In this document: positions 2 through 44,225 of the stretch, in pieces
Layout: every line of letters begins with the position of its first letter
Numbering within the stretch: the first letter of the stretch is position 1
DNA from: Bordetella genomosp. 11
Lineage (GTDB): Bacteria > Pseudomonadota > Gammaproteobacteria > Burkholderiales > Burkholderiaceae_B
Length of the DNA stretch: 64,000 nucleotides
Direction of reading: 5' to 3'
NCBI RefSeq assembly: GCF_002261215.1
Contig: NZ_NEVS01000004.1
Location: 930,001-994,000 of the forward strand
Program-made: the position numbers and the translations under genes
The notes under the pieces: generated by a model
What the model saw: only the letters and a program-made list of their open reading frames with translations
What the model was told of the DNA's origin: nothing
The model's database searches: none

Positions 2-1780
2 GCCCGCTGCGCCGCGATCGTGCGCGCGGCGATGCCGTCATGCGTACTGGTCGCCTCGGAGACGTTGGCTGCACGCGCGCAAGCGTGGGCCCAGGGTGTG
101 CCGTTGTTCGCGTCGGCGCGTCTGGAGGTGGCGCCGGATGACGCGCGTCCCGGCACGCCGGGGCAGGGCGGCAGGGTGGCCCCCGCGGATCGCGGCGATG
201 CTTGCGCGCGGGGCGATAGCGATATGCCGACGCGGGACGATGTCGATTCCTCCGTCCTGGACGATGTCGCTTACGTCCTGTTCACGTCGGGCTCCACGGG
301 CGAACCCAAAGGCGTGCCTATCGCGCATCGGCAGTTATTGAACTACGTAGCCGCGGCGACCCGCGCGATGGACCTGGGGCAGTCGCGCCGCTGGGCCTTG
401 ACGGGCACGGTCGCGGCGGACCTGGGGAACACCGCCTTGTTCGGCGCTTTATCCCAGGGCAGCGCCCTGATCGTTGCCGCGCAGGACGATATGCGCGATG
501 GCGCCACCTTCGCCGCCTTTCTGGCGGCGCATCGTATCGACGGAATAAAGATGGTTCCCTCGCATCTGGAAGCCTTGCTCGACCACGAGCACGCCCGCGT
601 GCCTGCGCGTGTGGTGCTGGGCGGCGAAGCGTCGTCGGCCGCGCTGGTGCGCCGCATTTTCGCCCTGTCGCCGCGATGCGCGCTCTACAACCATTACGGT
701 CCCACCGAAGCGACGGTCGGCGTGATGATCCACCCGGTGGACGCATGGTGCGGAGATACGCCGATGGACGAGGCCCCTATCGCGGCCGATGGCGCGGCGG
801 GTCCCGGCTACGGGTCCACGCTGCCGCTGACCCGCGTCCTGGGCAATTGCCGGGTGTATGTGCTGGACGCCGATCTGTCGCCGACGCCGCTGGGCGCGGC
901 CGGCGAAGTCTATCTGGGCGGCGCGCAGCTGTGCGCCGGTTATCTGGGCGGGGAAGGGGCGCAAGCCTTCGTGGCCGATCCCCATCGGCCAGGCGAACGC
1001 CTGTACCGCACCGGCGACCTGGCCTGCGTGCTGCCGGACGGCGCGATTCGCCTGGCGGGACGCGTGGACCACCAGGTCAAGATACGCGGCCACCGCATCG
1101 AACCCGCCGAAATCGAGGCGCGCCTGCTGGCCTTGCCGGATATACGGCAGGCCGCGGTCATCGCGGTCCCGGCGGCCGGCGGCGTGGCGTTGACGGCGTT
1201 CGTGGTGGACACGGAAATGCCGGATGCGGTGGGCATCGCGGCCGACGGATCGGAGCCCGCCCGCGGCGGCGACGAGCGGATCGCGGCCTGGCGCCGCGCC
1301 CTGGCCGATATGCTGCCGGACGTCATGGTGCCGGCCCGGTTCCTGCGCTTGCCCGCCTTCCCGCGCCTGGCCAACGGCAAGATAGACCGGCAGGCCCTGG
1401 CGGCGCGCGCGCGCGGCCATGTCGAACAGGACGTCGGCCAGGCGCGGCCGCGCGACGCATTGGAGACTGTCGTGGCAAGCCGCATGGCCGAGTTGCTCGG
1501 GCAGCCCTCGTTGGGTATCGATGACGACTTCTTCGCGATGGGCGGGCATTCGCTGCTGGTCATCAGGCTGGTGACGCGGCTGCGCAAGGCGCTGAAGCTG
1601 GAGTTGCCGCCCGGCGCGGTGTTCGATCATCCGACCGCGGCGGCGCTGGCGGCCGAATTGCGCCGCCGTGCCGAGGATCCATCCGCCCTGGCGCGTATCG
1701 CCGAATCGCGCGTGGCCCTGGATCGCATGACGCCGCGGGAACGCGCCGCGCTGGCGGCCGGCATCGAGGAGCGCGCATGA
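2..1780 (+). CDS. NRPS, 3' part: adenylation (Asp) - carrier protein; 5' end outside window
   Basis: The reading frame is open to the left edge, so this is the C-terminal part of a larger synthetase. It begins inside an adenylation domain, between core motifs A2 and A3. Visible cores are [10 protein letters not shown] (from nt 272), NHYGPTEAT (A5), YRTGDL (A7) and NGKIDR (A10). A peptidyl carrier domain follows, with the phosphopantetheine Ser in GGHSL at 1550-1552. The selectivity residues I read are D-L-T-K-V-G-H-V-G, which is essentially the aspartate code known from other synthetases. The protein ends straight after the carrier, with no epimerase or thioesterase, so the aspartyl chain must pass to the next gene, whose first domain is an L-type condensation domain. 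The stop TGA overlaps an ATG in an ATGA, and the downstream start region is duplicated. Neighbouring dedicated genes suggest a siderophore. No Asp beta-hydroxylase domain is visible in this part. Confidence 0.93.
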   Translation, partial: ARCAAIVRAAMPSCVLVASETLAARAQAWAQGVPLFASARLEVAPDDARPGTPGQGGRVAPADRGDACARGDSDMPTRDDVDSSVLDDVAYVLFTSGSTGEPKGVPIAHRQLLNYVAAATRAMDLGQSRRWALTGTVAADLGNTALFGALSQGSALIVAAQDDMRDGATFAAFLAAHRIDGIKMVPSHLEALLDHEHARVPARVVLGGEASSAALVRRIFALSPRCALYNHYGPTEATVGVMIHPVDAWCGDTPMDEAPIAADGAAGPGYGSTLPLTRVLGNCRVYVLDADLSPTPLGAAGEVYLGGAQLCAGYLGGEGAQAFVADPHRPGERLYRTGDLACVLPDGAIRLAGRVDHQVKIRGHRIEPAEIEARLLALPDIRQAAVIAVPAAGGVALTAFVVDTEMPDAVGIAADGSEPARGGDERIAAWRRALADMLPDVMVPARFLRLPAFPRLANGKIDRQALAARARGHVEQDVGQARPRDALETVVASRMAELLGQPSLGIDDDFFAMGGHSLLVIRLVTRLRKALKLELPPGAVFDHPTAAALAAELRRRAEDPSALARIAESRVALDRMTPRERAALAAGIEERA

Positions 1781-1856
1781 CCGTGTCCGACCGAACCCTT
1801 GCAGCGAGGATCAAGCATGACCGTATCCGACCGAACCCTTGCAGCGGGGATCAGGC
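1777..1856 (+). repeat. 40-bp tandem duplication of a start-codon/RBS segment at an NRPS gene junction
   Basis: Two head-to-tail 40-bp units (1777-1816 and 1817-1856) differ at only three positions. Each starts with ATGACCG and ends with an AGGATC- or GGGATC-like Shine-Dalgarno segment. A third ATGACCG begins at 1857, the true start of the next synthetase. The result is three ATG codons at exactly 40-bp spacing, each in a different frame because 40 is not a multiple of three. The first ATG opens a 27-codon frame ending at 1860, overlapping the true start. The second opens a 16-codon frame ending at 1867. A single-copy ancestor would have had an ATGA overlap between the two synthetase genes. 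Confidence 0.9.
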
Positions 1857-4800
1857 ATGACCGATAGCCGACTGGATCTGTTGCGGGCCCTGCTGGCCGA
1901 TGACGAGGACGATGGCGAGCGCGCGGCTGGCGCGGCCTCCGTCGATGCCATGCCTCGCGCGGTGCTCGACACGGAGGGCTGGGCCGGGGTGTCGCCGGCA
2001 CAGCGCCAGTTGTGGTTCCTGCATCGCTATGCGCCGTCGTCGACCGCCTACAACCTGCCGCGCGCGTTTCTGTTGCGCGGACCGCTGGACGCCGATGCGC
2101 TGCGGCGGGGCTTCGACGCCCTGGTGCGGCGGCATGCCATCCTGCGTACCCGCTTCGGCGAGATCGACGGCGTGCCGATGCAGCGCGTCGATCCTCATGG
2201 CCGATGCGAGCTGGCCTGGCACGACTTGTCCGGGCTGGCGCCCGCCGATCGCGAGCTGGCGCGCGAGGCGCGGCTGGCGGCGCTGGCGGGCCATGTCTTC
2301 GATCTGGAGGCGGACTTCCCGCTGGTAGCGACCTTGATGCGTCTGGACGCGGATACGCATGTCCTGGCGTGGTGCCTGCACCATATCGCGTCGGATGCCT
2401 GGTCCAATCCGGTCTTCGCCCGGGATCTGGCGCAAGCCTATCGACAGGCCCTGGCGCGGGAGGGCGAGGTGGCCTTGCCCGCCCTGGCCCGGCAGTACGT
2501 GGATTTCGCGGCATGGCAGGAGGAGCGCGCCGCGCGGGGCGCATGGGCGCAAAGTATCGACTATTGGGACCGGCACCTGGGCACCGACGCGCCGGCCCTG
2601 GTCCTGCCCACCGATCGCACGCGTCCCGCCGACATCGGTTTCGCGGGGGCATCCCATTACTTCGAGGTGCCGCCGGACCTGGCGCGCGCGCTGCGGGCCC
2701 ATTGCGCCGCCCTGCGCTGCACACCCTTCGTCGTGTTGTTCGCCGCGTGGCAGGTGCTGCTGTCGCGCTATGCCGGGCAGGAGAGCTTCACCATCGGCGT
2801 ACCGTCTTCCGGGCGCTCGCTGCCGATGTCACAGGAGCTGGTGGGCTTCTTCGTGCAGACCCAGGTCTTCAAGGCGGATATCGATGCCGCGCAAACCCTG
2901 GAGCAGGTGTGCCGCCGCGTACGCGACCTTGCGCGTGGCGCGATGGATCACGCGGACCTGCCGTTGGAACTCTTGCTGGAACGGCGCCATCTCGCCCGCG
3001 AGCCCGGCCGCCATCCCTTGTTCCAGGTGATGTTCGGCGTGCAGGCCACCGACGGCGCGCCGGAACTCGCGCTGAAGGACCTGTCGTCGACGCGACTGCC
3101 TTTGCCCGAGCGCGCCGCGAAATTCGAGCTGTCGCTGGACTTCCTGTTGAACGAGGCAGGGTGGGCGGACCCGCGTGGCGGCGAGAGCGCCGTGCTTGGC
3201 CGCCTCGAATACAACACCGCGCTGTTCACGGACGCCACCGCGCGGCGCCTGGCCGCGCGCTTCCTGGCCGTGCTGGCCGAGGTGGTGCAACGCCCGCAGT
3301 CGCGGGTCGCCGACGTGGACATCGTCCTGCCCGATGAAGCGGAGCGGTTGCGGGACTGGAGCCGGGGAGGGCCGGCCCTGGCCCCCTTGCCGCCGGTCCA
3401 CGTCGCGTTCGCGGAACAGGCCCGGCGCACGCCGCGCGCGCCCGCGCTGGAAATGGGCGATGCGGTCCTGAGCTATGCGGAGCTGGACGGCCGCGCCAAC
3501 GCATTGGCGCATCGCCTGGCCGCATTGGGGGTGGGGCCGGATGTGCCCGTCGCCATCATGCTGGAACGTTCCGTCGAGATGGTGGTCGGCTTGCTGGGCA
3601 TCCTGAAGGCCGGTGCCGCCTATGTGCCCGTGGACCCGGAGTACCCGGCGCAGCGGCTGGCTTATATGCTGGAGGACTGCGGCAGCCGCCTGCTGCTGCT
3701 GAAAGGCGCCACGCCGGCCGCGCTGTCCATTCCGCCCGGCATGGCGGTGGTGGATCTGGCGCGGGACGCGGCGGCGACGCATGCGCGGCCGCCGGCGGTC
3801 CGCCTGCATGGCGAGAACCTGGCCTACGTCATCTACACATCCGGTTCGACGGGCCGCCCCAAGGGGGCCGCCAATCGCCACGGCGGCCTGGCCAACCGCA
3901 TCGCGTGGATGCAGCGCGAATACGGGCTGACGCCGGACGACGCGGTGCTGCAGAAGACGCCATTCGGTTTCGACGTGTCCGTGTGGGAATTCTTCTGGCC
4001 GCTGATGACGGGCGCGCGCCTGGTCATGGCTGCGCCGGGCGATCACCGCGATCCCGCCCGCCTGGCCGCATGCATCGTGCGCCACGGCGTGACCACGCTG
4101 CATTTCGTTCCTTCGATGCTGCGGGCATTCCTGGCCGATGGACAAGCCGCCCATTGCCGCGGCGTGCGCCGCATCCTGTGCAGCGGCGAAGCGTTGCCCG
4201 GCGATGCGCGCGACGCGGTTTCGCGCGAGATGCCCTGGGCCTGCCTGCACAATCTCTACGGGCCCACCGAGGCCGCCATCGACGTCACCCATTGGACCTG
4301 CGCCGCGTCGGATACCGGCAATGTCCCCATCGGGCGGCCCATCGCCGGCCTGCAGACATGGATATTGGACGGCGGCCTGAAGCCCGTGCCGCCCGGGGTT
4401 CTGGGCGAACTCTACCTGGGCGGCGCCGGATTGGCGCGCGGCTACGCGCGGCGGCCGGGGTTGACCGCGGATCGTTTCGTCGCCGATCCCTTCGGGGCGC
4501 CGGGCACGCGCCTGTATCGGACGGGCGATCTGGCCAGTTGGGACGCGGAAGGACGGATCGTCTACCAGGGCCGTACCGACCATCAAGTGAAGATACGCGG
4601 CCTGCGCGTGGAACTGGGCGAGGTGGAAGCCTGCCTGCTGGCGCAGCCCGGCGTGACGGCAGCGGTGGCGGTGGCGCATGCCGGACACGCGGCCACGCAA
4701 CTGGTGGCCTATGTGGCGGCGGGGGAACGCGCGCCGGATCCCGCCTCGCTGCGGGAAGCGCTGGCCGGCCAGCTGCCGGACTACATGGTGCCGGCCCTTA

Positions 4801-7800
4801 TCATGGTGCTGCCCGGCCTGCCCCTGAACGCCAACGGCAAGATAGACCGCAAGGCGCTGCCGCCGCCGGACTTCGTGGCCGGCGCATCCCATGAGCCGCC
4901 GCACGGGCCGTTGGAAACGCTGCTGGCCTCCGTCTGGGCCGGGGTGCTGGGTGTACAGCGCGTGGGACGGCTGGACAACTTCTTCGAGATAGGCGGGGAT
5001 TCCATCCTGAGCCTGAAGGTGGTGGCCGGCATGCGCAAGGCGGGCTGGGCCATCAGCCCGCGCGATGTCATGGAACGGCAGACCGTGGCCGCGTTGGCCG
5101 CGGCCGCCCGGCCTTTGGGTGCTGTATCGGGTGCTGTATCCGGCGCGGCGGCGGCGGGTCGCGCGGCGCTGGCGCCCATCCAGCGCTGGTTCTTCGATAC
5201 GCCCATGCCGGCGCGCGAACACTGGAACCAGTCCGTCCTGTTGCAGCCGGCGGGTGCGATCGACCTGCCGGCATTGCAGGCCGCCGTGCGCGCGGTGATG
5301 GCGCATCACGATGCCTTCCGGTTGCGCTATGCGCCGCAAGGGGATGGGTCGTGGGTACAGCGCTATGCGCCGCCTGCCACGCCGCCGGATGACTGGGTTG
5401 TTGTCGATCTGTCGCGGGCCGAGGATGTGCCACAGGCCATCGGCGCCGCCGCGGAGGAAGTCCAGCGGGGACTGGATCTGGGGGCCGGCCCGGTGACGCG
5501 GGCCGCCTGGCTGGATCTGGGCGCCGGCCGGCCCGGCCGCCTGCTCTGGGTGGCGCATCACCTGGTCGTGGACGCGGTGTCGTGGCAGATATTGCTGGAC
5601 GATCTGCAGACCGCCTACGAGCAGGCCAGGCTGGGGCAGGCGCCCTGCCTGGGCGCCGTGGGCGTCAGCTACGGCGCCTGGACCGCCGCGCTGGAAGGCT
5701 ACCGCGATCGCGCCGCCACGCAGGCGCAACGCGAGCTCTGGCGCGCGCTGTGCGGCCACGACGAACCGCCCTTGCCGGCACGCGATCCGGCCGGCGGCAA
5801 TACCGTGCGCATGGCGCGCACCGTGCACACCGTCCTTGAGGCGGAGACGACCGAAGCCCTGCTGGCGCGCGCCGCCCGGGACCATCGCGCGCAGGCCCAC
5901 GAAACCCTGCTGGCCGGGCTGGCGTTGGCGCTGCGCGAGTGGACCGGCCGCGACAGTGTCCTGGTGGAAATCGAAGGCCATGGCCGCGAGGACGTGGTGG
6001 CGGACCTCGATGTTTCGCGTACCGTCGGTTGGTTTACCGCCCTGTATCCCGTGCGGCTGGCCCCGGGCAGCGGGGGGCCAGTGCAGGCGCTGGCCGCCGT
6101 CAAGGCCCAGCTGCGCGCCATCCCCGACAAGGGATTGGGCTACGGCGCGCTGCGCCATGGCGGCGCGGGCCTGCAAGGGCTGGCGTCGCCGCGCCTCACG
6201 TTCAATTACCTGGGCCGGCTGGACGGCACGCTGCGCGGCTGGACCTGGGCGGCGGAATCCGCGGGCGCGGAGCGGCATCCCGACAGCCCCCGGCGCACCT
6301 GGCTGGACGTGGGCGCATCGGTGCGCGACGGTGCCCTGCATGTGGCCTGGACCTACAGCGGCGCCATCTTCGACGATGCGGCCATCGAGACGCTCGCGCA
6401 CCGCTACATGGCCCATCTGCGCGAGCTGGCGGAAGCCTGCGCGGCTTCCGCGGCCGTCGCGCCGATGGCGTCCGACTTTCCGCTGGCCGGCCTGGACCAG
6501 GCGCAGCTGGACCGCCTGGCGCCGGATCCGGCCGTGGTGGCGGATATCTATCCGGCGACGCCCTTGCAGCAGGGGCTCTTGCTGCACACGCTGATGAAGC
6601 CCGCTTCGGGGATATACCTGATGCAGGATCGCTACCGCTTCGACCGCCGCATCGATGCTCACGCGATGGAACGGGCGTGGCGGTTGCTGGGCCAACGCCA
6701 CGAGGCGCTGCGCGCCGGCTTTGCCTGGCGCAGCGGAGAAGCCCCCATGCAGCTTATCCACTACGACGTCGGCACGCCCGTCGACATCCTGGACTGGCGG
6801 CGGGACGACACCGCGGTGGCGCTGGAGCGCATGCAAGGCATGCTGCGCGGCGAACTGGCCGCCGGCTACGACATGAGCCGCGCGCCCTTGTGGCGGGTCA
6901 GGTTGTTTCGCCTGGCGGATGCGGACCGCATGGTGCTGAGCTATCACCATATCCTGATGGACGCCTGGTGCCGTTCCGTGCTGCTGGCGGATTTCTTCCA
7001 CGCCTACAAGGCCTTCCGCGACGGCGGCGAGCCGCGCCTGGGCAGCACGCGGCCGTACCGGGATTTCATCGCGTGGCTGGGACGCCAGGACAAAGGGGCG
7101 GCGCGAAGCTACTGGCGCGGCGCGCTGGCGGGATATTCGACGGTGACGCCGTTGCCGCTGCCTGCCATCAACGCGTCCGGCACGAGCACGTCCAGCGCGG
7201 ACGCCGATGCGGGCGGCGGCGAGGCCGCCGACGCGCTGCTGCGCCTGCCGGCATCCGATACGGCTGCCTTGCAGCACGCGGCGCAAGGGGCGCAACTGAC
7301 CGTCAATACCTATGTGCAGGGCGCCTGGGCCTTGCTGCTGGCGCGCTGCGCCGGCATGGACGAGGTGTTGTTCGGCGTGACCGTGGCGGGGCGGCCGACC
7401 GAGCTGGATGGCGTGCACGATACCGTAGGCCTGTTCATCAATACGCTTCCGCTGCGCCTGGCGGTGCCGGCGACGGCGCGGGCCGCGGCGTGGCTGCGCG
7501 ACATACAGGCGGTCAACGCCGTCATGCGCGAACACGAGCATCTGTCGCTCGCGGAGATCCAGGCCCTGGCCGGCGATCTGCCGCGCGGCATGAACCTGTT
7601 CGACACCCTGTTCGTTTTCGAGAACGCGCCGCTGGATAGCGCGATGCTGGCCGACGCCGAGGAACTGGGCCTGTCCGCCGATGGCGCGCGCACGCATACC
7701 AACTACCCCTTGACCCTGGTGGCGAAGCCCGGCCCGGAACTGGGCCTGCAGATCACCTATGACGCCACCCTGTTCAGGCGATCCGAGATCGATGGCCTGC

Positions 7801-9809
7801 TGCATAGCCTGCGGCACATCGTGATGGAATTGGCCGGGCGGCCCGACGCGGTGCTGGCCGACGTGAACCTGCTGCCCGAAGCCGGACGCGAGCGCCTGCG
7901 CGCGTTGGGATGCGGCGCGGCGCCCGCGTATCCGCTGGACGCCGGCTATGCCAGCCTTTTCGAGAGGACGGCCGCGCATCATGCGGAGCGCACGGCCGTG
8001 CGTGCCCGCGAAGGCTGCCTGACGTATGGCGAGTTGAACCGGCGCGCCGAGCGCCACGCGCATGTGCTGGCCGCGCATGGCGTGGGGCGCGACGATGTGG
8101 TGGCTATTTTGGCCGAGCGGGGATTGGAGATGCTGGCCAGCGTGCTGGGCGCGTTCAAGCTGAATGCGGCCTATCTGGCGCTCGATCCGTCCTTGCCGCC
8201 GCGGCGCATCGCGCAGGTCCTGCAACTGGCGGGCGTGCGGACGCTGGTGGTATCGGCGCCGGTGGCCGCCGCCCTGGGCGACGGCCTGGCCGCGCTGCCC
8301 GCGTCGATACGGGTGGTGCCCGGCCCGGCCTTCGACGGCGACGAACCCAGGACCTATCCGCGCGGCGCGGCCCGGCCGGACCAGGCTGCCTACGTCATCT
8401 TTACCTCCGGATCGACCGGCGAGCCCAAGGGTGTCGTGGTGACCGCGCGCGGCATGCTCAACAATCAACTGAGCAAGATTCCCTACCTGGGACTGGGGCC
8501 GGACGATGCGATCGCGCAGACCGCGTCGCAGAGTTTCGATATTTCCGTATGGCAATTGCTGGCGGGGCTGCTGTGCGGGGCGTGCGTGCACATCGTTCCC
8601 GACGAGGTCGCCCGCGATCCCGGCGCCCTGTTGGAACAAGTGCGGCAGGATGGCATCACCGTACTGGAATGCGTGCCGACCCTGATTCAGGGCATGCTGC
8701 TGCGCGACCCGGTGCCGCTGCCGCGCCTGCGCTGGCTGATGCCGACCGGGGAAGCCACGTCCATGGCCCTGGCACGGGCCTGGCAGGCGCGCTATCCGGA
8801 CATCGGGGTGGTGAATGCCTACGGTCCCGCCGAATGCGCCGACGATGTCGCCTTGTACCGCTTGCCCGCGATGGCGGCGGACGACGCATCGGGATCGATA
8901 CTGGCCATCGGCCAGGCCACCGACCATAACCGCCTGTACGTGGTCGATGCGAACCTGGCGCCCCTGCCTGCCGGCGTGGTGGGCGAACTATGCGTCGCCG
9001 GTGTCGGCGTCGGGCGCGGCTATCTGCATCGGCCCACGATCACCGCGGAAAGATTCGTGGCCGATCCCATGCCCGGCTCGCCGGGGGCGCGCATGTACCG
9101 CACGGGCGATCTGGCGCGTTTCCGGGAGGACGGCATCCTGGAGTACCTGGGGCGCGTGGACCACCAGGTCAAGGTGCATGGCTTCCGTATCGAACTGGGC
9201 GAGATCGATGCCCAGTTGGCGCGCATCGCGTCGGTGCGGCAGGCTGTCGCCGTGGTAAGGGAGGACGGGCAGGGCGGACATCGCCTGGTCGCCTACGTTG
9301 TCGCGCGGGAGCCGGCGCAGGTCGATAGCGACGAGGGGCGCGTGCGTTGGCTGGCGGATGTCCGGGCGGCCCTGGCGCAGGCATTGCCGGCGTACATGGT
9401 GCCCGCGGTATGGGTGGCGTTGGCGGCCTTGCCGCTGAGCCGCAACGGCAAGGTGGACCGCAAGGCCCTGCCGGCGCCGGAACCCCAGGACGCGAGCCAG
9501 GCGTATGTCGCGCCGGCCGACGACAACGAGCAGCGGCTGGCGCGGATCTGGTCGCAGGTGCTGGGGGTACCGCGGGTGGGCCGGCATGACAGCTTCTTCG
9601 AACTGGGCGGGCATTCGCTGATGGTGATGCAGGTGGTCGCGCGCATCCAGCGCGAATGGCAGGTGGACGTGCCGCTGACCGCCCTGTTCGAGGCACAGAC
9701 CCTGGCCGCGTTCGCCGGCCGGGTGGCGGAGGCGGCGACGGCGGCGGCCGGCCGCGACCAGGCGCTGCGGCGCATGGACGATTTCCTGGATACGCTGGAG
9801 GCGATGTAA
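1857..9809 (+). CDS. NRPS, two modules: C-A(Ser)-T-E-C-A(Dab)-T
   Basis: This 2650-residue synthetase adds two residues to the chain. Domain order, with approximate residues: condensation 25-490 (HHIASDAW near 175, L-donor type); adenylation 515-1000 with code D-V-W-H-L-S-L-I-D (serine); carrier with Ser1049 in GGDS; epimerase 1100-1535 ([22 protein letters not shown]); condensation 1560-2015 (HHILMDAW, D-donor type); adenylation 2030-2540 with code D-I-W-E-M-T-A-D-D, very close to the diaminobutyrate code of pyoverdine-type synthetases; carrier with Ser2587 in GGHS. Expected step: D-Ser then Dab. The epimerase His motif has Ala where Gly is usual. I chose ATG 1857 because GGGGA lies 6 nt upstream. 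An upstream in-frame TTG at 1839 lies inside the duplicated segment and is less likely. The stop overlaps the next start (TAATG). The Dab call fits the Dab aminotransferase gene at 39327-40868. Confidence 0.93.
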
Positions 9810-12800: not shown

Positions 12801-15800
12801 TCGAGCTTGGCGAGATCGAAGCGCAGCTGTTGGCGCAGGACGGCGTCAAGCAGGCCGTGGTGCTGGCGCAGACGGGGCCGGCACTTGCCGGAGTTGCTGG
12901 ATCAGGACCGCACGAAGCGACCAATGCGGACGGCCTGGGTAACCCGATTGGGCAGAATGGATTCAGCGTGTCGAGAGGACCGGGCGAACCGGCCGGCCCC
13001 CAAGGCCTGGATGCGCAAGGTTCCTCCGGTAGCGCGCAAGCCAGCCTGCGACTGGTCGCCTACGTAACCCCGGCAAGCCTGGACACGGCGATGCTGCGCC
13101 AGGCGCTGGAACGCAGCCTGCCGGCGTACATGGTGCCGTCGGCCATCGTCACGCTGGACACCTTGCCGATCACGGCCAACGGCAAGCTCGATCGCAAGGC
13201 GCTGCCGCAGGCGCAGTTCGCCTCGACGCAAAGTTACGAAGCACCGCAAGGCCAGTTGGAGGAAACCCTGGCCGGCATCTGGCGCGAAGTCCTGGGTGTG
13301 GTGCAAATTGGGCGACACGATAATTTCTTCGAGGTTGGCGGGGATTCGATCCTGAGCCTGCAGATCGTGGCGCGGCTGCGTCAGGCGGGCTGGCGGATCA
13401 GTCCGCGCCAGATGTTCGAGCGCCAGACCGTGGCGGCCCTGGCGCAAGTGGCCGTGCGCGTCGCGGCGGATGGCCAGCCCTACCAGGGCGCATCCGCGCA
13501 CGATGCCTCGGGCAATGCTGCGGGACAGGCGCGGGCAGGCGAGGGAAATGCCGAACCGGACCAGGAAGACACCGCAGCGGGCCAGGAAGAGATCTCGGCG
13601 GGGCAGGAAGTGCCCTTGCTGCCGATCCAGGCGCAGTTCCTGTCGCTGCCCCTGTCCACGCATAACCACTGGAACCAGGCAGTGCTGCTGCGCAGCGACA
13701 CCGAAGTGGATATCCAGGCCTTGAAGGCGGCGCTTGCGGCGGTGGTGTCGCATCACGACGCGCTGCGGCTGCGCTACCGGCGCGGCGAGGATGGCCAATG
13801 GATCCAGGCGTATGGAGATATCGATCCTGTTCCGACATCTTCGGATTTCAATGCCGTTCAGGCTTCTTCGGATATCGACCCTGTTCAAGCTTCTTCGGAT
13901 ATCGATGCCGTCCAGGCTTCTTCAAATATCGATACCGTCCAGGGAGATGCGGATCGTATTGCCTCTCACGATGAGGCAGCCCCGGATGCCCCCGACGCAG
14001 GCATCTGGGACCTGACGGCGGCCGACGCGGCCGAGATCGAAGCGCACTGCGCGCGCGCGCAGGCGAGCTTGGACATTACCCATGGCCCGTTGGTGCGCGC
14101 CGCGCGCATGCGGGTGGCCGACGGCAGTTGGCGCTTGCTGCTGGTGATCCACCACCTGGCGGTGGATGGGGTCTCCTGGCGCATCCTGCTGGAGGACCTG
14201 CGCCAGGCTTACGAGCAGGCGCGCCGGCAACAAGCGCCGCGCCTGGCCGCGCGTACGGCCAGCTATGGCGCGTGGGCGCGCGGTCTGCGCCGGCAGGCAG
14301 CGATGCATGCCCAGGAGCAACCGTATTGGACAAACCTGCCGGCCGGCGCCTTGCCGCCGCCGGACCGGGTGGATGGTCCGGCCCGCGTCGCCGACCTGCG
14401 CCGGGTCGAGGTCAATCTCACACCCGCGCAGACGCAGGCCTTGCTGCGGCAAGCGCCGTCGGCCTATCGCACGCAGGTCAATGACTTGCTCCTGGCCTCG
14501 CTGGCCCTGGCGTTGCGCCAATGGCGCGGGCTGCGGCAGATCCGCATCGACCTGGAAGGACACGGACGCGAGGCCGATGCGCTGGGCCTGGATGTCACGC
14601 GCACGGTGGGCTGGTTCACCACGGTCTATCCGGTGGTACTGCAAACGGATGGCGAAGCCGCCGACCTGATTCGGGACGTGAAGGAGCGCTTGCGCGCCGT
14701 GCCGCGGCACGGTTTGGGCTATGGGGTGCTGGGCCGCTGGGGCGATGCCTCGGTGCGGCAGGCCTTGTCCGGCGCGCCGGCCTCGCCGATCCTGTTCAAC
14801 TACCTGGGCCAATTCGACGCGGGCGTGGGCGGCGGGGACTGGCGCGTGGCCGAGGAAGACGTCGGTTCGGGCCAATGGGAGGCCGCGCCGCTGTCGCATG
14901 CGCTGACCGTGAACGGACGGGTCTACGACGGCCAGCTGTCGCTGTCGCTGGGCTACAGCGGCACGCAGTGGCACGAGTCGACGATGCGGGAGCTGGCGGC
15001 GCGCTGGACCGAGGCGCTGTCCACGGTGATCGGGCATTGCACCAGCGGCGCGCAGGGAGTGACGCCATCGGACTTCCCGCTTGCCGGCTTGACGCAGTCC
15101 GAAGTGGATGCCTTGCCGATCGGCCAGCCGATGGGGCAGTGGCAGGATGTCTACCCCGTCACGCCGATGCAGGCAGGGATGCTGTTCCACGCGATCTATG
15201 GAAATGATGCCGATGCCGTCACGCGTGTAGGCAAGGATCCGGATGCGGGCCGGCAGGATACCGGGCGGGACGATCAGCCCTACATCAACCAATTGCGGGT
15301 CGATATCCATGGCCTGGACGAATCGCGTTTCCAGGCTGCGTGGGAATCGGCGGTGGCGCGGCACGATGTGCTGCGCACGGGGTTCATCGCGCGGGCGGGC
15401 GCGCCGCTGCAATGGGTGGCGCGCCAGGCGCGGCTGCCGTTCGAACGGCAACAGGTCAGGGGCGATGCCGGGGAAGTGGCCGCGCGGCTGGACGCCCTGG
15501 CCGCGTCGCAGCGCGCGGCAGGGTTCGATCTGTTGGTGCCTCCTCTGATGCGCTGCCTGCTGGTGCGGGTCAACGATGCGTATGACCACTTTATCTGGAC
15601 GCATCATCACCTGCTGCTGGACGGCTGGAGCACGTCGCAGCTGTTGGGAGAGGTATTGAGTGACTACGCGGGCGGGGCAGTGGCGCGCCCGGCGGGCCGC
15701 TATCGGGACTACCTGCAATGGCTGGCCAGGCGCGATGCGCAGGCCACGCAGGCTTACTGGATGGGGCGGCTGCGGGAGCTGGAAGCCTCGACCCTGTTGG

Positions 15801-18895: not shown

Positions 18896-18899
18896 ACAC

Positions 18900-24800: not shown

Positions 24801-27800
24801 TATCTGAATCGGCCCGGCCTGAGCGCCGAACGCTTCGTCGCGCATCCCGACGGCAATGGCGCGCGGCTGTACCGCACCGGCGACCTGGCGCGCTGGACCC
24901 ACGATGGCCAGCTCGAGTATCTGGGCCGGTTGGACCACCAGGTGAAGATCCGGGGATTCCGCATCGAGCTGGGCGAGATCGAGGCGCAGCTGTTGGGGCA
25001 GGAAGGCGTGACCCAGGCCGCGGTGCTGGCGCAGGCGGGGCCGGCGCTGGCCGGGGCGGGGCAGGATGGGCAGGGCAGCCTGCGCCTGGTCGCCTACGTG
25101 ACCCCGGCAAGCCTGGACACCGCACTGCTGCGCCAGACGCTGGAGCGCAGCCTGCCGGCGTACATGGTGCCGTCGGCCATCGTCACGCTGGATACCTTGC
25201 CGATCACGGCCAACGGCAAGCTCGACCGCAAGGCGCTGCCGCAGGCGCAGTTCGCTTCGACGCAAAGTTACGAAGCACCGCAAGGCCAGTTGGAGGAAAC
25301 CCTGGCCGGCATCTGGCGCGAAGTCCTGGGTGTGGCGCAAATTGGGCGACACGATAATTTCTTCGAGGTTGGCGGGGATTCGATCCTGAGCCTGCAGATC
25401 GTGGCGCGGCTGCGCCAGGCCGGCTGGCGGATCAGTCCGCGCCAGATGTTCGAGCGCCAGACCGTGGCGGCCTTGGCGGAAGTCGCCACGCGCGTGCAGG
25501 CGAACGGCCAGTTCCGCGATGGCGCATCCGCGCAGGGTGCCTCGGGCAATCCTGCGGCACAGGAGCCGGCAGGCGAAGGAGATGTCGCGGCGGGTCAGGA
25601 GGACCCCGTAGCGCGCCGGGAAGATACTCAAGCGGGCGAGGAAGACATTCCAGCAGGCCAGGAAGTGCCCTTGCTGCCGATCCAGGCGCAGTTCCTGTCG
25701 CTGCCCTTGTCCACGCACAACCACTGGAACCAGGCGGTGCTGCTGCGCAGCGACGCGGAAGTGGATATCCAGGCCTTGCGCGCGGCGCTCGCGGCGGTGG
25801 TTTCGCATCACGACGCGCTGCGGCTGCGCTACCGGCGTGGCGAGGATGGTCAATGGATTCAGGCGTACGCGGATATCAATACTGCTCCGGCATCTACCCA
25901 TGTCAATCCTGTTCAGGCATCTGCCGATATCCCTACCGCTCAGGCTTCTTCGGATATCCATATCGCTCAGGCTTCTTCGGATATCCATACCGTTCAGGCT
26001 TCTTCGGATATCCATACCGTTCAAAACGATGCGGATCGTATTGCCTCTCAGGATGAGGCAGCCCCGGATTCCTCCGACGTAGGAATCTGGGACCTGACGG
26101 CGGTAGACGCGGCCGAGATCGAAGCACACTGCGCGCGCGCGCAGGCGAGCCTGGACATTACCCATGGCCCGTTGCTGCGCGCCGCGCGCATGCGGGTGGC
26201 CGACGGTAGCTGGCGCTTGCTGCTGGTGATCCACCACCTGGCGGTGGATGGGGTCTCCTGGCGCATCCTGCTGGAGGACCTGCGCCAGGCTTACGAGCAG
26301 GCGCGCCGGCGTCAAGCGCCGCGCCTGGCCGCGCGCACGGCCAGCTATGGCGCGTGGGCGCGCGGTCTGCGCCGGCAGGCAGCGATGCATGCCCAGGAGC
26401 AACCGTATTGGACAGGCTTGCCGGCCGGCGCCTTGCCGCCGCCGGACCGGGCGGATGGGCCGGCCCGCGTGGGCGACCTGCGCCGGGTCGAGGTCAATCT
26501 CACACCCGCGCAGACGCAGGCCTTGCTGCGGCAAGCGCCGTCGGCCTATCGCACGCAGGTCAATGACTTGCTCCTGGCCTCGCTGGCCCTGGCGTTGCGG
26601 CAATGGCGCGGGCTGCGGCAGATCCGCATCGACCTGGAAGGACACGGACGCGAGGCCGATGCGCTGGGCCTGGATGTCACGCGCACGGTGGGCTGGTTCA
26701 CCACGGTCTATCCGGTGGTACTGCAAACGGATGGCGAAGCCGCCGACCTGATTCGGGACGTGAAGGAGCGCTTGCGCGCCGTGCCGCGGCACGGTTTGGG
26801 CTATGGGGTGCTGGGCCGCTGGGGCGATGCCTCGGTGCGGCAGGCCTTGTCCGGCGCGCCGGCCTCGCCGATCCTGTTCAACTACCTGGGCCAATTCGAC
26901 GCGGGCGTGGGCGGCGGGGACTGGCGCGTGGCCGAGGAAGACGTGGGCTCGGGCCAATGGGAGGACGCGCCCCTGTCGCATGCGCTGACCGTGAACGGAC
27001 GGGTCTACGACGGCCAGCTATCGCTGTCGCTGGGCTACAGCGGCGCGCAGTGGCACGAGGCGACGATGCGGGAGCTGGCGGCGCGCTGGACCGAGGCGCT
27101 GTCCACGGTGATCGGGCATTGCACCGGCGGCGCGCAGGGGGTAACGCCATCGGACTTCCCGCTTGCCGGCTTGACGCAATCCGAAGTGGATGCCTTGCCG
27201 ATCGGCCAGCCGATGGGGCAGTGGCAGGATGTCTACCCCGTCACGCCCATGCAGGCAGGGATGCTGTTCCATTCCATCTACGGTCAGGATGCCGTCGCCG
27301 GGTCGCCAGCAGGCGATGGCGCGCCGATGGGGCTTCGTTCGAATACGGAAAGGGACGAAGCCTCTATGCGGGAGGACGTATCGGGCGTCACGGAAGACGT
27401 TGCGGGTCTGGCCGTCCAGCCGTACATCAACCAACTTCGGGTGGATGTGCGAGGCCTGGATGCGCGGCGTTTCCAGGCTGCGTGGGAATCGGCGGTGGCG
27501 CGGCACGATGTGCTGCGCACGGGATTCATCGCGCGGGCGGACGCGCCGCTGCAATGGGTGGCACGCCAGGCGCGGCTGCCGTTCGAACGGCAACAGGTCA
27601 GGGGCGATGCCGGGGAAGTGGCCGCGCGGCTGGACGCCCTGGCCGCGGCGCAACGCGCGGCGGGGTTCGATTTGTTGGTGCCTCCCCTGATGCGCTGCCT
27701 GCTGGTGCGGGTCAACGACGCGTATGACCACTTTATCTGGACGCATCATCATCTGCTGCTGGACGGCTGGAGCACGTCGCAGTTGCTGGGAGAGGTACTG

Positions 27801-30800: not shown

Positions 30801-33800
30801 GGCGCACAGGATAGGACGCGACAGGATCGTGCGGAACAAGATCGGGGAGGACAGGATACCCCCGCGTCCGGCCCTCAAAGCCTGGCGGACTATCCCGACG
30901 CCCCCGCCGCCGCGGCCCTGGCGCTGGACGACAGCGATATCGAAGACGTGCACCCCTTGTCGCCCACCCAGGAAGGCATGTTGTTCCACACCCTGGAAGC
31001 GCCGGGCAAGGGGCTGTATGTCAATCAGATCAGCGTACGCATGCAGGGCGCGGACGCGGCGCGGCTGGCGCGCGCGTGGTCGGCCATGGTGGCGCGCCAT
31101 GCGACGCTGCGCACGTCCTATCTATGGCGGGCCGGCATGGACAAGCCGCTCCAGCTGGTCCACCGCAGCGTCGATCCTGGCGTCACGATCCTGGATTGGC
31201 GTGGACGGGACAAGCAGGCCGAACACCTCGCGGCCTTCGCGGAAGAACAATCCCTGGGCATCGACGTCGCGCGCGCGCCGCTGTCCCGGCTGGCCTTGAT
31301 CCGCCTGGATGCGGATACCCATCAATTGATCTGGACGCATCACCACCTGTTGCTCGACGGCTGGAGCGCGTCGCGGCTGGTCGGCGAGTGGTTGCGCACG
31401 TATGGCGGCGAGTCATTGCCGGCCGCCGGCCCCGCCTACGGCCACTACGTGCGCTGGCTGGGCCGACAGGACCGCACCGCCAGCGAACGCTTCTGGAAGG
31501 AATCGCTGAAAGCGCTGGACGGCCCCACCTTGCTGGCGCAATGTCCCGGCGCGCATGCGGCGCCGGGCACGGAAGCCTACGCGCGCATCTACACCCGCCT
31601 GGACGCCGCCCGGACCATCCACCTGCGCGAGTTCGCCCGGTCGCAGCGCGTGACGCTCAATACCGTCATACAGGCCGCCTGGGGCCTGCTGCTGCAGCGG
31701 TGCGCGGGCAAGGATACGGTGGTGTTCGGCGCCACCGTTTCGGGCCGCCCCGCCACCTTATCCGGCGTGGAAGACATCCTGGGCCTGTTCATCAATACCA
31801 TTCCGGTTCCCGTGCGCGCCGCGCCGTCGCGTGCCGTCGGCGATTTCCTGCGCGACCTGCAGGCAGAGAACCTGCGTCTGCGCGAACATGAACATGCCGG
31901 GCTGGCCGATATCCAGCGCTGGGCCGGATCGTCCGGACGGCCGTTGTTCGACAGCATCGTCGTGTTCGAGAACTACCCCGTGGACCGCACGCTGAAAGAC
32001 CGCGAACGCTACGGGCTGCGTTTCGGGGAAAGCCAGGGTGGCGGCCTGACCGGCTACGTCATGGATATCCAGGTAGTCGCCACCGATGAAATCGAACTCG
32101 AATACTGCTATAGCACCGCGCATCTGCCCGAGCCGATGGTCCTGGACCTGCGGCGCCAGATGGAACAGCTGCTGCGCGAAATCACGCGGGATGCGCGCGC
32201 CCCGGTGGGCGATCTGGGGTGGCTGGACGAACAGGCCCTTGACGTGCTGCGCGCGTGGGGGCGCGATGCGGGGCAGGTCCGCGCGGCGGGGCCCGGCTAC
32301 GTGCATCGTCTGATCGCTGCCCATGCGCGCCAGCGGCCCGATGCGCTGGCCCTGGTCATGGACGGCGACAGCCGTTCCTACGCCGAGCTGGACGCGGCCG
32401 CGAACCGCCTGGCCCATCGGTTGATCGAGGCCGGCATCGGGCCGGAACGACGCGTGGGCGTGGCGATGCCGCGTTCGCTCGATACCGTGGTCGCCTTCCT
32501 GGCGGTGTTGAAGGCAGGCGGGGCCTACGTCCCGCTGGACCTGGACCATCCGCAGGACCGGCTGGCGTATATCGCGCGCGACAGCGGCATGGCCCTGCTG
32601 CTGGCGTCCGCTTCGGGCCCGGCGCATCTGTCCCGCCTTGGCGTGCCGGTGCTGGTCTGCGACGAGGCGGCCGCGAACGACGGGCCGGCCACCGATCCCG
32701 GCGTTCGCCTGTCGCCGGACAACCTTGCCTACATCATCTATACCTCCGGATCCACCGGCAAGCCCAAGGGCGTGGCGGTGACCCATGGGCCCCTGGCCAT
32801 GCATTGCCAGGCAACCGCCCGCATCTACGGCATGACGCGCGAATCGCGGGAACTGCTGTTCATGTCCTTCTCTTTCGACGGGGCGCACGAACGCTGGCTG
32901 ACCGCGCTGACCACCGGCGCGAGCCTGGCCGTGCGTGGCGCGGAGCTGTGGACCGCGCAGGAGTCGCTGGCGGCCCTGCACCGCTATGGCATCACCAACG
33001 CGGCTTTCCCGCCCGCCTACCTGGCGCAGATGGCGGACCATGCCGCCCAGCATGGCAACCCGCCGCCGATGGATCTGTATGTGTTCGGCGGCGAGGCGAT
33101 GCCGCGCGCCGTTTACGAGCGCGTGCGCAGCTACCTTCCCGCCCGTTGCTACATCAATGGCTATGGTCCCACCGAAACCGTCGTCACTCCCCTGATATGG
33201 AAGACCGCGGCGGACGCGGGCTTCGACTGCGCCTATGCGCCCATAGGCAAGGCAGTGGGGGAACGCCGGCTGTACGTGCTGGATGCGGACCTGCGCCCGG
33301 TTCCCATCGGCCACGTCGGCGAGTTGTACATCGGCGGCTACGGCGTGGCGCGAGGCTATCTGGGCCGCACGGCGCTGACGTCGGCAAGCTTTGTCGCCGA
33401 TCCCTTCGGCGACGCGGGCTCGCGCATGTACCGCAGCGGCGACCTGGTGCGTTGGCTGGCCGATGGCAATATCGAATACATCGGCCGGCGCGACAGCCAG
33501 GTGAAGATCCGCGGCTTCCGCATCGAACTGGGTGAAGTCGAGGCCAGCGTCCTGGGCTTGCCCGGCGTGGAGGAGGCCGCGGTGGTCTTCCACCAGGCGT
33601 CTTCCGGCGCGCAATTGGCGGCGTACATCGGCGTGGGCGATAAGGCGGCATCGACGCTTTACCCCGTTGCGGGATCGGCATCGCGCGCGGTACCGGCCGC
33701 CGGCGCCGATACCGGCCCGGGCGGCCCGATCAGCCTGGCGTCGCACTTGCGCGGGCTGCTGGCCGCGCGCCTGCCCGACTACATGGTGCCCGCGTCCATT

Positions 33801-35066
33801 ACCGTGCTGCCGCGCCTGCCGCGCCTGATCAGCGGCAAGCTGGACCGGCAGGCGCTGCCGGCGCCCAGCGCGGCGGCGCAGCGGGACTTCGTGGCGCCGT
33901 CCACGGATGCGGCGCGCCAGCTTGCCGCCGTCTGGCAGGAAATCCTGAACGTGCCGCGCGTGGGGCAAACCGACAACTTCTTCGAACTCGGCGGCGATTC
34001 GCTGCTGAGCCTGAAGATGTTGAGCCGCGTGCGCGTGCTGGAGCGGCCGGAGCTGTCATTCACCCTGCGGGACCTGATGCAGCGTCCCACGATCGCCGGC
34101 CTGCTGGGCCTGGAGCAACCCGCCGCCGCCGCGCCCGTGCCCTTGAACAGCGGCCAAGGGGCCGGCGCGCCCCTGTTCTGCGTGCATGCGGGCATGGGCA
34201 CGCTCTACGACTACCAGACGATGGCCAGGCGGTTCGACGGTATCCGGCCGGTCTATGGCTTGCCTTGCCGCATGCTGCTCGACGCCGGGCATGAAGACCG
34301 CGCCTTGGCGCAAATGGCGGAGGACTACAGCGCCATGGTATCGGCCGCGCAGCCGCGAGGCCCCATCCATTTGCTGGGATGGTCGCTGGGCGGCACGCTG
34401 GCCGCGATGATGGCGCAGCGCCTGGAGGCGGATGGCCGCGAGGTGGGCTTCCTGGGGCTGGTGGATCCTTATATCAGCGGCCTGGAGCAGGAAGCGCAGC
34501 GCGATTGGCGCGAGGACTTGCCGGGCTATGCGCGTTTGATGGCGCCGGACATTCCATCCGCGCGCATCGACGCGGCGGCGCAGACCCAGCGGGCCGCGTA
34601 TGCCGCCGTCGACCCGCGGCCGGCGAATGCCGGGCGCACCGAAGCGCTGCCCGACACACCGGCATTGACCCAGGAAGCGGTGGAAGCCCGCCTGGCCGGC
34701 TTGCTGGGCGGCGCGACGGCGAGCCCGGCGGGCTTGGACGTTTGCGAACTGGCGCGCATCTTCCTGGTGGCTCGCCATCTCCAGGTGCTCTCGCTGCAGG
34801 CGGGGCCGATGGGCAAGCTGCGGGCGCGGCCCTGGTGCTGGTGGCGAGCCGGCCGCGATGAGGCCCAGCGGCGCGCGTTGGCGGCGCAACTGGGCCATGC
34901 CGCCGGCGAAACCCATCGCACGCTGGCCGCGGATCATTACGCCATTATCCGTGACGGCGTTCTGCTGGAGCATGTGGCGGGCGCGCTATCGGCGATGGAA
35001 GAGGGCGCCCGCGCTGAAGTGTCAACCGAAGCGTCGCTGGTCGAGGATGTGGGAATGCAGGGATAG
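18900..35066 (+). CDS. NRPS, four modules plus thioesterase: C-A(Asp)-T-C-A(Thr)-T-E-C-A(Ser)-T-C-A(OH-Orn?)-T-TE
   Basis: This 5388-residue terminal synthetase has approximate layout: C 50-495; A 500-1030, code D-L-T-K-V-G-H-V-G (Asp); carrier Ser1075; C 1134-1584; A 1594-2110, code D-F-W-N-I-G-M-V-H (Thr); carrier Ser2161; E 2257-2754; D-type C to about 3255; A about 3265-3860, code D-V-W-H-F-S-L-I-D (Ser); carrier Ser3910; C 4010-4455; A 4467-4987, code D-G-E-A-V-G-G-V-T, which resembles hydroxyornithine-type signatures and is less certain; carrier Ser5034; type I thioesterase 5080-5388 with GWSLGG (Ser5162) and a C-terminal DHY His. All four condensation His motifs are intact. ATG 18900 follows GGAGA by 9 nt and the previous stop by 4 nt. 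The thioesterase should release or cyclise the peptide. The third carrier is of the type that precedes an epimerase, yet no epimerase follows. The A-domain C-terminal part of the Thr module is copied from the Ser modules. Confidence 0.94.
25662..27958 (+). repeat. Epimerase-condensation block, copy 2
   Basis: Nearly identical DNA to 13608-15812. Here it follows the Thr module rather than a Ser module. Upstream, the homology to the Ser modules already begins inside the A domain, near 24950-25080. Confidence 0.88.
25872..26033 (+). repeat. 27-bp in-frame minisatellite in epimerase domain, 6 units
   Basis: Units start at 25872, 25899, 25926, 25953, 25980 and 26007. Units 3-5 differ from each other at only one or two codons and encode DIHT(V/A)QASS. 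The last unit ends QNDA, matching the exit of the five-unit array at 13817-13951. The third base positions are also conserved, which points to recent slippage or unequal exchange rather than selection on protein alone. Confidence 0.93.
28682..30760 (+). repeat. Near-identical Ser adenylation/carrier block, copy 3
   Basis: The third copy of the Ser A domain and carrier, in module 3 of the terminal synthetase. The A8-A9 insert is much shorter (about 30240-30315) than in copies 1 and 2. The carrier is of the epimerase-associated type, but the next domain is a condensation domain. Confidence 0.9.
29244..29345 (+). repeat. Degenerate VHxxD-type repeat insert in Ser A domain, copy 3
   Basis: The shortest of the three A2-A3 inserts. 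It encodes LPVHASD, SVHASD and PVRVPD-like words followed by LPVHAEQ. The DNA shows two adjacent GTTCACGCATCGGA words. Confidence 0.75.
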
Positions 35067-39271: not shown

Positions 39272-39326
39272 AATGGTCGTAGCGTGAAGAATCCCCTTGG
39301 GCAATGCGAGGCCGGACAGGCCGGCA

Positions 39327-40868: not shown

Positions 40869-40888
40869 GGTCTGTGCCTCGCACAAGG

Positions 40889-42190: not shown

Positions 42191-42200
42191 GTCGTCCCGT

Positions 42201-43151: not shown

Positions 43152-43216
43152 CGATCCATTTCCCCCAGTAAGGGCCCGGCCGGCGTGCAGCCATGATGCG
43201 GTCCGTATTCTTGAGA

Positions 43217-43241
43217 GACGAATGAGAAAGGTTGCTGTTTA
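43217..43241 (-). promoter_or_regulatory. Iron-starvation ECF sigma promoter (TAAA-N17-CGTC) for the siderophore operon
   Basis: Read on the minus strand, TAAA (43241-43238) is followed by exactly 17 nt and CGTC (43220-43217). This is the published architecture for PvdS/OrbS-class sigma factor promoters. It lies in an AT-richer patch of the 155-nt gap between the fhuF-like gene and the acyltransferase, pointing at the acyltransferase start at 43151. The same element with the same spacing recurs at 44201-44225. Confidence 0.8.
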
Positions 43242-43306
43242 GCCCCGGCGCGGCCATGGTCCGGCGCATCGATCCGGGCGCGGGCCGTCCGGGCCGACCT
43301 GGCCGG

Positions 43307-44128: not shown

Positions 44129-44169
44129 GTCGGCGCCGGAGGAAGTTTTGCGGGCGGCATAGTTATGCA

Positions 44170-44194
44170 GACGAACCGGCGCGGCGAAAATTCA
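44170..44194 (-). promoter_or_regulatory. Near-consensus ECF promoter (TGAA-N17-CGTC) for the fhuF-like gene
   Basis: On the minus strand, TGAA (44194-44191) is followed by 17 nt and CGTC (44173-44170), one base off the perfect elements at 43217-43241 and 44201-44225. It lies 42 nt upstream of the fhuF-like GTG start and back to back with the exporter promoter, so the two genes would be co-induced divergently. Confidence 0.6.
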
Positions 44195-44200
44195 GTCGGG

Positions 44201-44225
44201 TAAACATCGCCCCCTCTGGTTCGTC
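44201..44225 (+). promoter_or_regulatory. Iron-starvation ECF sigma promoter (TAAA-N17-CGTC) for the ABC exporter
   Basis: TAAA (44201-44204), 17 nt, CGTC (44222-44225), directed at the exporter start GTG 44256. The predicted transcription start just after CGTC would leave a leader of roughly 20-25 nt. Same motif and same spacing as 43217-43241. Confidence 0.8.

What the first reader, a model, noticed from the sequence alone, without database searches (positions are those of the whole stretch)
2..35066. Large, apparently undescribed peptide siderophore synthetase with readable order Asp, D-Ser, Dab, D-Ser, Ser, Asp, D-Thr, Ser, OH-Orn
The A-domain pocket residues, epimerase positions and condensation types give a nine-residue partial sequence ending in a thioesterase. 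The accessory genes make exactly the two non-protein monomers predicted (Dab and N-hydroxyornithine). The A-code readings rest on established codes for Asp, Ser, Thr and Dab; the hydroxyornithine code is less secure. I do not recall a known Alcaligenaceae siderophore with this order. Residues are partly missing because the operon starts upstream.
Basis: partly seen in the sequence, partly recalled or inferred. Interest (0 to 1): 0.85.

Follow-up and report, generated by a model that had tools for sequence, protein, structure and literature searches.

The report
Potashchelin-like lipopeptide siderophore assembly line
This stretch of a Bordetella-like bacterium encodes most of an assembly line for a fatty-acid-tailed, nine-residue iron-scavenging peptide that is predicted to match the known potashchelins of Halomonas at eight of nine positions, so it is a new relative of a known molecule rather than something wholly new.

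Summary
Nine A domains read Asp, Ser(E), Dab, Ser(E), Ser, Asp, Thr(E), Ser, OH-Orn, ending in a thioesterase, with Dab-transaminase, Orn-monooxygenase, GNAT, FhuF, TonB-receptor and exporter genes alongside. Two points of the interpretation need correction. (1) Residues are probably not missing: three relatives hold the same line whole and a fourth in pieces; there the upstream part is an acyl-loading protein (FAAL-T-C-TauD), a stand-alone TauD and a C-like domain without the catalytic motif before Asp1. The nine residues are then the whole peptide, N-acylated, both Asp probably beta-hydroxylated. (2) It is close to something described: potashchelins are acyl-OHAsp-Ser-Gly-Ser-Ser-OHAsp-Thr-Ser-cyclic OHOrn (PMC7100376); the prediction differs by Dab for Gly at residue 3. 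Listings of five searches and the passages I opened showed no Dab version. Nearest named relatives: Bordetella bronchialis, B. sputigena, Bordetella genomosp. 8 and 9, Achromobacter. In passing: Ser modules 4, 5 and 8 evolve in concert within genomes. New member of a known kind; product unverified.

The parts
2..1780 (+). N1, 3' part: A(Asp1)-T; the window cuts its 5' end
   Evidence: Pfam AMP-binding from profile position 84 on; code DLTKVGHVGK; homologues in G442, G438, G419 are Cx-A-T of 1046-1068 aa
1857..9809 (+). N2: C-A(Ser2)-T-E-C-A(Dab3)-T
   Evidence: start from database copy P0001, 2650 aa
9809..18895 (+). N3: C-A(Ser4)-T-E-C-A(Ser5)-T
   Evidence: start from database copy P0241, 3028 aa
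18900..35066 (+). N4: C-A(Asp6)-T, C-A(Thr7)-T-E, C-A(Ser8)-T, C-A(OHOrn9)-T-TE
8031..9512 (+). A domain of module 3 (Dab), code DIWEMTADDK; the one residue that differs from potashchelin (Gly)
5172..6482 (+). E domain after Ser2
   Evidence: HHLVVDA and EGHGR
13745..15079 (+). E domain after Ser4
   Evidence: HHLAVDG and EGHGR
25800..27161 (+). E domain after Thr7
   Evidence: HHLAVDG and EGHGR
32385..33893 (+). A domain of module 9, code DGEAVGGVTK (hydroxyornithine)
   Evidence: near-identical DGEACGGVTK listed among ornithine codes that accept modified Orn
34167..35066 (+). Thioesterase region
   Evidence: PF00975, 68.9 bits, partial match; GWSLG
36049..37035 (-). alpha/beta hydrolase (PF07859), syntenic in relatives
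37037..39304 (-). TonB-dependent siderophore receptor, FhuA/FoxA-like
39327..40886 (-). Diaminobutyrate-2-oxoglutarate transaminase (makes Dab)
40889..42190 (-). Lys/Orn N-monooxygenase (makes N5-hydroxyornithine)
   Evidence: PF13434, E 1.9e-119
42201..43151 (-). GNAT acyltransferase of the Acetyltransf_8 type; role at OH-Orn uncertain
   Evidence: PF13523, E 2.3e-56
43307..44128 (-). FhuF-type siderophore-iron reductase
44256..45914 (+). Cyclic-peptide-type ABC exporter
   Evidence: TIGR01194, 444 vs 286 bits
45869..47011 (-). 4'-phosphopantetheinyl transferase; frame start uncertain, possibly part of the cluster
   Evidence: PF01648; in relatives a PPTase of 35-36% identity lies upstream instead

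Best explanation
The locus is most of a siderophore gene cluster of a Bordetella-like Alcaligenaceae bacterium. Shown by sequence: four NRPS proteins hold nine modules ordered Asp, Ser-E, Dab, Ser-E, Ser, Asp, Thr-E, Ser, OH-Orn, with a C-terminal thioesterase, flanked by Dab and hydroxyornithine supply enzymes, exporter, receptor and reductase. Inferred from relatives: just upstream of the window lie an acyl-loading protein (fatty acyl-AMP ligase, carrier, starter C, fused TauD hydroxylase) and a stand-alone TauD hydroxylase, so Asp is the first residue and the nine-mer is complete. Proposed working (inferred): the FAAL loads a fatty acid; the starter C joins it to Asp on N1, whose own C-like domain lacks the catalytic motif and probably docks a hydroxylase; the two hydroxylases convert Asp1 and Asp6 to beta-hydroxyaspartate on the carrier; E domains invert Ser2, Ser4 and Thr7 (to D-allo-Thr); the TE releases the chain, probably closing the last residue to cyclic N-hydroxyornithine. 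Two beta-OH-Asp and one hydroxamate would give six iron ligands and the tail an amphiphilic molecule. Predicted: acyl-OHAsp-dSer-Dab-dSer-Ser-OHAsp-d-alloThr-Ser-cycloOHOrn, a Dab3 variant of potashchelin.
For: Codes and domain order. Same nine assignments in G442, G438 and G419 with FAAL-T-C-TauD, TauD and Cx-A(Asp)-T upstream, and in G432 as far as its two fetched contig pieces reach. Homologous FAAL-T-C-TauD proteins in B. sputigena, Bordetella genomosp. 8 and B. bronchialis; in genomosp. 8 the FAAL gene is CAL12_11035 and the N2 homologue CAL12_11045, both on a contig of 6,167,536 bases. Cx lacks HHxxxDx in 4 of 4 copies read (G442, G438, G419, H. socia). Dab transaminase present in the fetched stretch of 9 of 10 clusters with a DIW[EQ]xTADDK code (8 of 9 without the window, whose gene was the query) and 0 of 3 without it. 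Potashchelin: same order but one residue, same D positions, same loading and hydroxylase set, and a DCL-labelled last C domain as here.
Against: The window's own upstream DNA was not seen and no genome is held for it. The Dab, Ser, Asp and Thr code meanings are recalled, and DGEAVGGVTK and DIWELTADD were not found in any paper held. H. salipaludis has a DIWQLTADDK code but no Dab transaminase in its 60-kb stretch. The last C domain groups with post-E C domains although no E precedes it, so Ser8 could be D. The GNAT has no clear role if OH-Orn is cyclic. The potashchelin cluster is reported to have dual C domains and no E domains. No product is known.
Confidence: 0.8

Rival explanations
1. Same nine-residue acyl backbone, but the GNAT acylates hydroxyornithine (acetyl or 3-hydroxybutyryl), giving a linear N-acyl-OHOrn end or a lactuchelin/imaqobactin-type ring instead of cyclic OHOrn.
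For: GNAT gene next to the monooxygenase, kept in G442, G438, G419 and G432. In lactuchelin a 3-hydroxybutyryl group links Orn and OHAsp and the cluster has an N-hydroxyornithine acetyltransferase (PMC12904278, passages).
Against: The potashchelin cluster also has an acyltransferase beside the monooxygenase, yet its product ends in cyclic OHOrn.
Confidence: 0.3
2. The peptide is longer: in the window's own genome, further A domains lie upstream of N1.
For: The window starts inside N1 and its own upstream DNA was not seen.
Against: In G442, G438 and G419 N1 follows a FAAL-T-C-TauD protein directly; genomosp. 8 locus tags fit the same arrangement.
Confidence: 0.05
3. A lipopeptide whose main role is not iron uptake (surfactant or antibiotic).
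For: The exporter is of the general cyclic-peptide class; acyl loading in relatives.
Against: Siderophore receptor, FhuF and Orn monooxygenase in the window, and in G442 two TauD hydroxylases, ECF sigma factors and FecR.
Confidence: 0.02

Closest known systems
Potashchelins A-D, Halomonas sp. MG34 (PMC7100376; abstract, first three parts of the text and sections 18, 19, 21 read)
   Same: Acyl-OHAsp-Ser-X-Ser-Ser-OHAsp-Thr-Ser-OHOrn order, D at residues 2, 4 and 7 (the Ser positions were assigned there from C domains, not chemically), FAAL-ACP-C-TauD loading plus stand-alone TauD as in the window's relatives, monooxygenase and acyltransferase pair, terminal TE, last C domain labelled DCL.
   Different: Gly instead of Dab at residue 3; reported to use dual C domains and no E domains; cluster has an MbtH-like protein, which my motif search did not find in the window, G442, G438, G419 or the G432 pieces. 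Its DNA was not compared.
Homologous clusters in Achromobacter (G438, 100% match to Achromobacter sp. MFA1 R4 at the FAAL protein) and in Bordetella bronchialis, B. sputigena, genomosp. 8 and 9
   Same: Same order at 9 of 9 positions in G442, G438, G419; single homologous proteins in the named Bordetella species
   Different: N2 is 76-77% identical in Bordetella and 58-61% in the G genomes; no product found for any of them in the searches named in Tried and rejected
Lactuchelin A, Pseudomonas lactucae (PMC12904278, passages)
   Same: Acyl tail, TauD, two OHAsp, hydroxamate from Orn, GNAT, FhuF, TE
   Different: Seven residues, no Dab or Thr, OHOrn inside the chain and ring closed through 3-hydroxybutyrate

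Membership tests
Potashchelin itself (same compound) | Gly at residue 3 | tested here: not met
   Module 3 code DIWEMTADDK with a Dab transaminase in the cluster
Potashchelin-type acyl nonapeptide siderophores | Module order OHAsp/Asp-Ser-X-Ser-Ser-Asp-Thr-Ser-OHOrn | tested here: met
Potashchelin-type acyl nonapeptide siderophores | Epimerisation at residues 2, 4 and 7 | tested here: met
   E domains after Ser2, Ser4 and Thr7, by E instead of dual C domains
Potashchelin-type acyl nonapeptide siderophores | FAAL-type acyl loading and Asp hydroxylases | tested here: inconclusive
   Outside the window; present in G442, G438, G419 and G432
Potashchelin-type acyl nonapeptide siderophores | Orn N-monooxygenase and terminal OHOrn module with TE | tested here: met
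Potashchelin-type acyl nonapeptide siderophores | Isolated iron-binding product | not testable with these tools
   needs culture and mass spectrometry

The most novel reading that the evidence does not exclude
Bordetella and Achromobacter species share a so far uncharacterised acyl-nonapeptide siderophore of the potashchelin kind with a free, positively charged Dab side chain, whose three serine modules (4, 5, 8) are kept near-identical by repeated gene conversion, so that pocket residue 299 (Phe, Tyr or Val) changes in the copies of a genome together, while the other A domains evolve by position.
Probability: 0.65. Interest if true: 0.48.

Novelty: new member of a known kind. Interest (0 to 1): 0.4.

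Why it matters
It gives an almost complete, mass-testable structure for a siderophore in genera better known for alcaligin (recalled), including species found in human airways (recalled). The matched pair (Gly3 with dual C domains in Halomonas, Dab3 with E domains here) shows two domain solutions to one stereochemical pattern, and the homogenised Ser modules are a clean natural case of near-interchangeable NRPS parts.

Tried and rejected
Tried without gain: the window's own genome (none held); the genus group of the ppc-nearest genome G102 (0 of 6 genomes matched, and the tool warns that an empty answer shows nothing); a paper search for the codes DGEAVGGVT, DGEACGGVT, DIWELTADD and DGEAVGGI (one paper, for DGEACGGVT only). 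Plasmid collection: partial relatives; the Methylosinus OB3b and Variovorax plasmid stretches have other orders as far as read, as have the Halomonas salipaludis and H. socia clusters. The potashchelin cluster itself was not fetched, so that comparison rests on the paper. Corrugatin-type siderophores were considered; the passages I opened did not give their residue order, so they were not compared.

Paper searches for a described Bordetella/Achromobacter or Dab version: 13 papers; 2; 43, of which 20 listed; 12 naming potashchelin; 2. Most were seen as listings; of the 12 I opened three. The library is open-licence only, so absence is weak evidence.

Rejected: a truncated longer peptide; a non-siderophore lipopeptide; 'undescribed' in the strong sense. 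Left open: form of the C-terminal OH-Orn; configuration of Ser8.

Dropped or special rows: P0241 (database copy of the window's own N3) was removed before the trees, G432 was left out of them, an unrelated A domain (G419_2863_4446) stayed in tree A as an outlier, and bronchialis A4 was taken as one span because the profile hit was split by an insert. N3 was searched from 9806, one codon before the likely start.
Full report
What was claimed and what is there. Both are real. Frames 2-1780, 1839-9809, 9656-18895 and 18900-35066 hold nine A domains, nine carrier domains, three E domains and a terminal thioesterase. The pocket codes, taken from an alignment with a recalled GrsA stretch as ruler (tenth Lys assumed), read DLTKVGHVGK, DVWHLSLIDK, DIWEMTADDK, DVWHFSLIDK, DVWHFSLIDK, DLTKVGHVGK, DFWNIGMVHK, DVWHFSLIDK, DGEAVGGVTK: Asp, Ser, Dab, Ser, Ser, Asp, Thr, Ser and an ornithine-type code. 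The Asp, Ser, Thr and Dab meanings are as I recall them. For the last, a paper lists the near-identical DGEACGGVTK among ornithine codes that accept modified Orn (PMC12283262, sections 11 and 16 read). The exact codes DGEAVGGVT and DIWELTADD were in no paper held.

Accessory genes. On the minus strand: alpha/beta hydrolase, TonB siderophore receptor, Dab transaminase, Lys/Orn monooxygenase, GNAT acyltransferase and FhuF; on the plus strand a cyclic-peptide exporter; then a PPTase on the minus strand. The Dab reading was tested independently. Of 13 clusters compared (G432 counted once over its two pieces), 10 have a DIW[EQ]xTADDK code and 9 of these 10 have a Dab transaminase in the fetched stretch (8 of 9 if the window, whose gene was the query, is left out); the exception is Halomonas salipaludis. 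Of 3 without the code (H. socia, G447, Variovorax plasmid), 0 have it (codes). Stretches of 40-75 kb were read, and the Variovorax cluster runs to the end of its stretch.

Which organism. N2 is 77% identical to proteins of Bordetella genomosp. 9 and 8, 76% to B. bronchialis and 59% to Achromobacter kerstersii. N3 is 65% to B. bronchialis, 64% to B. sputigena and 52% to A. spanius. The listed copy of N3 itself lies on a contig of 4,813,373 bases.

How widespread. In the 268 genomes held for the family group of G102, which I take to be Alcaligenaceae because it contains G438 (its FAAL protein is 100% that of Achromobacter sp. MFA1 R4), 13 have the monooxygenase at E<=1e-60. Of these 13, 4 have an N2 homologue at 58-61% over nearly its full length. 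In 399 genomes sampled from the order, 20 have the monooxygenase; their assembly lines were not read, apart from none chosen for that purpose. The named Bordetella species were reached only through single proteins.

The missing upstream part. In G442, G438 and G419 the cluster is syntenic with the window from N1 to the exporter. Upstream of N1 come a FAAL-T-C-TauD protein and, before it, a stand-alone TauD dioxygenase; N1 itself is Cx-A(Asp)-T. G442 also has, further upstream, a PPTase, a type II thioesterase, a second TonB receptor, two ECF sigma factors and FecR. G432 shows the same from TauD to the first half of N3 on one contig and modules 8-9 with TE on another. Cx lacks HHxxxDx in 4 of 4 copies read, like the interface domains described for Asp hydroxylases (recalled). 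Homologous FAAL-T-C-TauD proteins exist in B. sputigena, Bordetella genomosp. 8 and B. bronchialis (56-58% to G438's). In genomosp. 8 the FAAL gene is CAL12_11035 and the N2 homologue CAL12_11045, both on a contig of 6,167,536 bases, which suggests the same gene order. So Asp is most likely residue 1 and the nine-mer complete. This was not seen in the window's own genome.

Comparison with the known. Potashchelins A-D are fatty acid-OHAsp-Ser-Gly-Ser-Ser-OHAsp-Thr-Ser-cyclic OHOrn (PMC7100376). [quoted passage not shown] loading is FAAL-ACP-C-TauD, with a stand-alone TauD and a TE. The predicted molecule differs at one residue, Dab for Gly at position 3. The machinery differs: they report dual C domains and no E domains, while the window has three E domains. 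In my C-domain tree the domains that follow E group together, and those at protein starts or after a plain carrier form another clade, with two exceptions: the last C of N4, in the window and G442, G438 and G419, falls with the post-E clade although no E precedes it, and the Halomonas HHLVMDH type branches beside that clade. The authors label the corresponding last potashchelin domain DCL too and still assign L-Ser8, so Ser8 remains a point to test.

Literature. Searches for a Dab version or a Bordetella/Achromobacter lipopeptide siderophore showed none in the listings and the passages opened. One 2026 paper mentions a putative graminine-containing metallophore in several Bordetella genomes (PMC12971057, passages), a different thing. 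The library holds open-licence papers only.

Iron binding. Two beta-hydroxyaspartates and one hydroxamate would give six donor atoms. This is inference from the family; hydroxylation is not shown for this organism.

A side result. On trimmed alignments the A domains of Ser4, Ser5 and Ser8 are 94.6-97.6% identical within each of six genomes (for B. bronchialis and B. sputigena only Ser4 and Ser5 were available), 81.1-86.1% between the window, B. bronchialis and B. sputigena, 90.4-92.7% between G438 and G442, and 63.0-72.6% for the other pairs. In the tree they group by genome for the window, B. bronchialis, B. sputigena, G438 and G419, while G442's copies intermix with A. spanius; Asp1, Ser2, Dab3, Asp6, Thr7 and OHOrn9 group by position. 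The E domains after residues 4 and 7 pair within the window, G438 and G419 (identical in G419 over the trimmed columns); G442's two lie unresolved with the A. spanius copy. Pocket residue 299 is Phe in the window and B. bronchialis copies, Tyr in B. sputigena's and Val in those of G442, G438, G419 and A. spanius. In the window, DNA blocks of 88-97% identity link parts of 11250-18705 and 25070-30760. Concerted evolution of NRPS domains is already described (PMC4256081, passages), so this is a good example and no new principle.

Verdict. Real, well read by the first stage, almost complete, and a new predicted member of a known siderophore kind. The product is unproven, and the C-terminal form is the main open point.

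Noticed in passing
window 11250-18705 and 25070-30760: Ser modules 4, 5 and 8 and the E domains after residues 4 and 7 are near-copies (88-97% DNA identity in blocks) and cluster by genome rather than by position: concerted evolution.
   Followed up: yes
window 13816-13943 and 25870-26036: 27-bp tandem repeats (about 5-6 copies, in frame) enlarge the same loop of both E domains; the loop is short in the B. bronchialis, B. sputigena and G438 copies viewed.
   Followed up: partly
window N3 and N4, stretch before motif A3 of A4, A5, A8 and A6: Low-complexity inserts: spacer of 112, 111 and 99 residues in the Ser A domains and 83 in Asp6, against 56-61 in the relatives measured. B. bronchialis has inserts at other places.
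   Followed up: partly
window 1761-1872: A 40-bp unit repeated 2.8 times lies at the N1-N2 junction; ATGA overlaps frame it, leaving a tiny frame between the two genes.
   Followed up: partly
window 30942-32234: The last C domain is of the post-E (DCL-like) clade though no E domain precedes it; the same holds in G442, G438 and G419.
   Followed up: partly
window 35131-35856 (-): A gene with a Stv putative adhesin domain sits between the NRPS and the accessory genes; no match in the relatives' stretches.
   Followed up: no
G442, positions 41620-43143 and 43180-56775 of the fetched 75-kb stretch: The N4 homologue appears as two frames (C alone, then the rest) in G442, against one frame in G438 and G419.
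   Followed up: no
window 48134-51974 (-): Neighbouring genes of another kind: D-serine dehydratase-like protein, MlrC-like protein and TctC-type binding protein.
   Followed up: no
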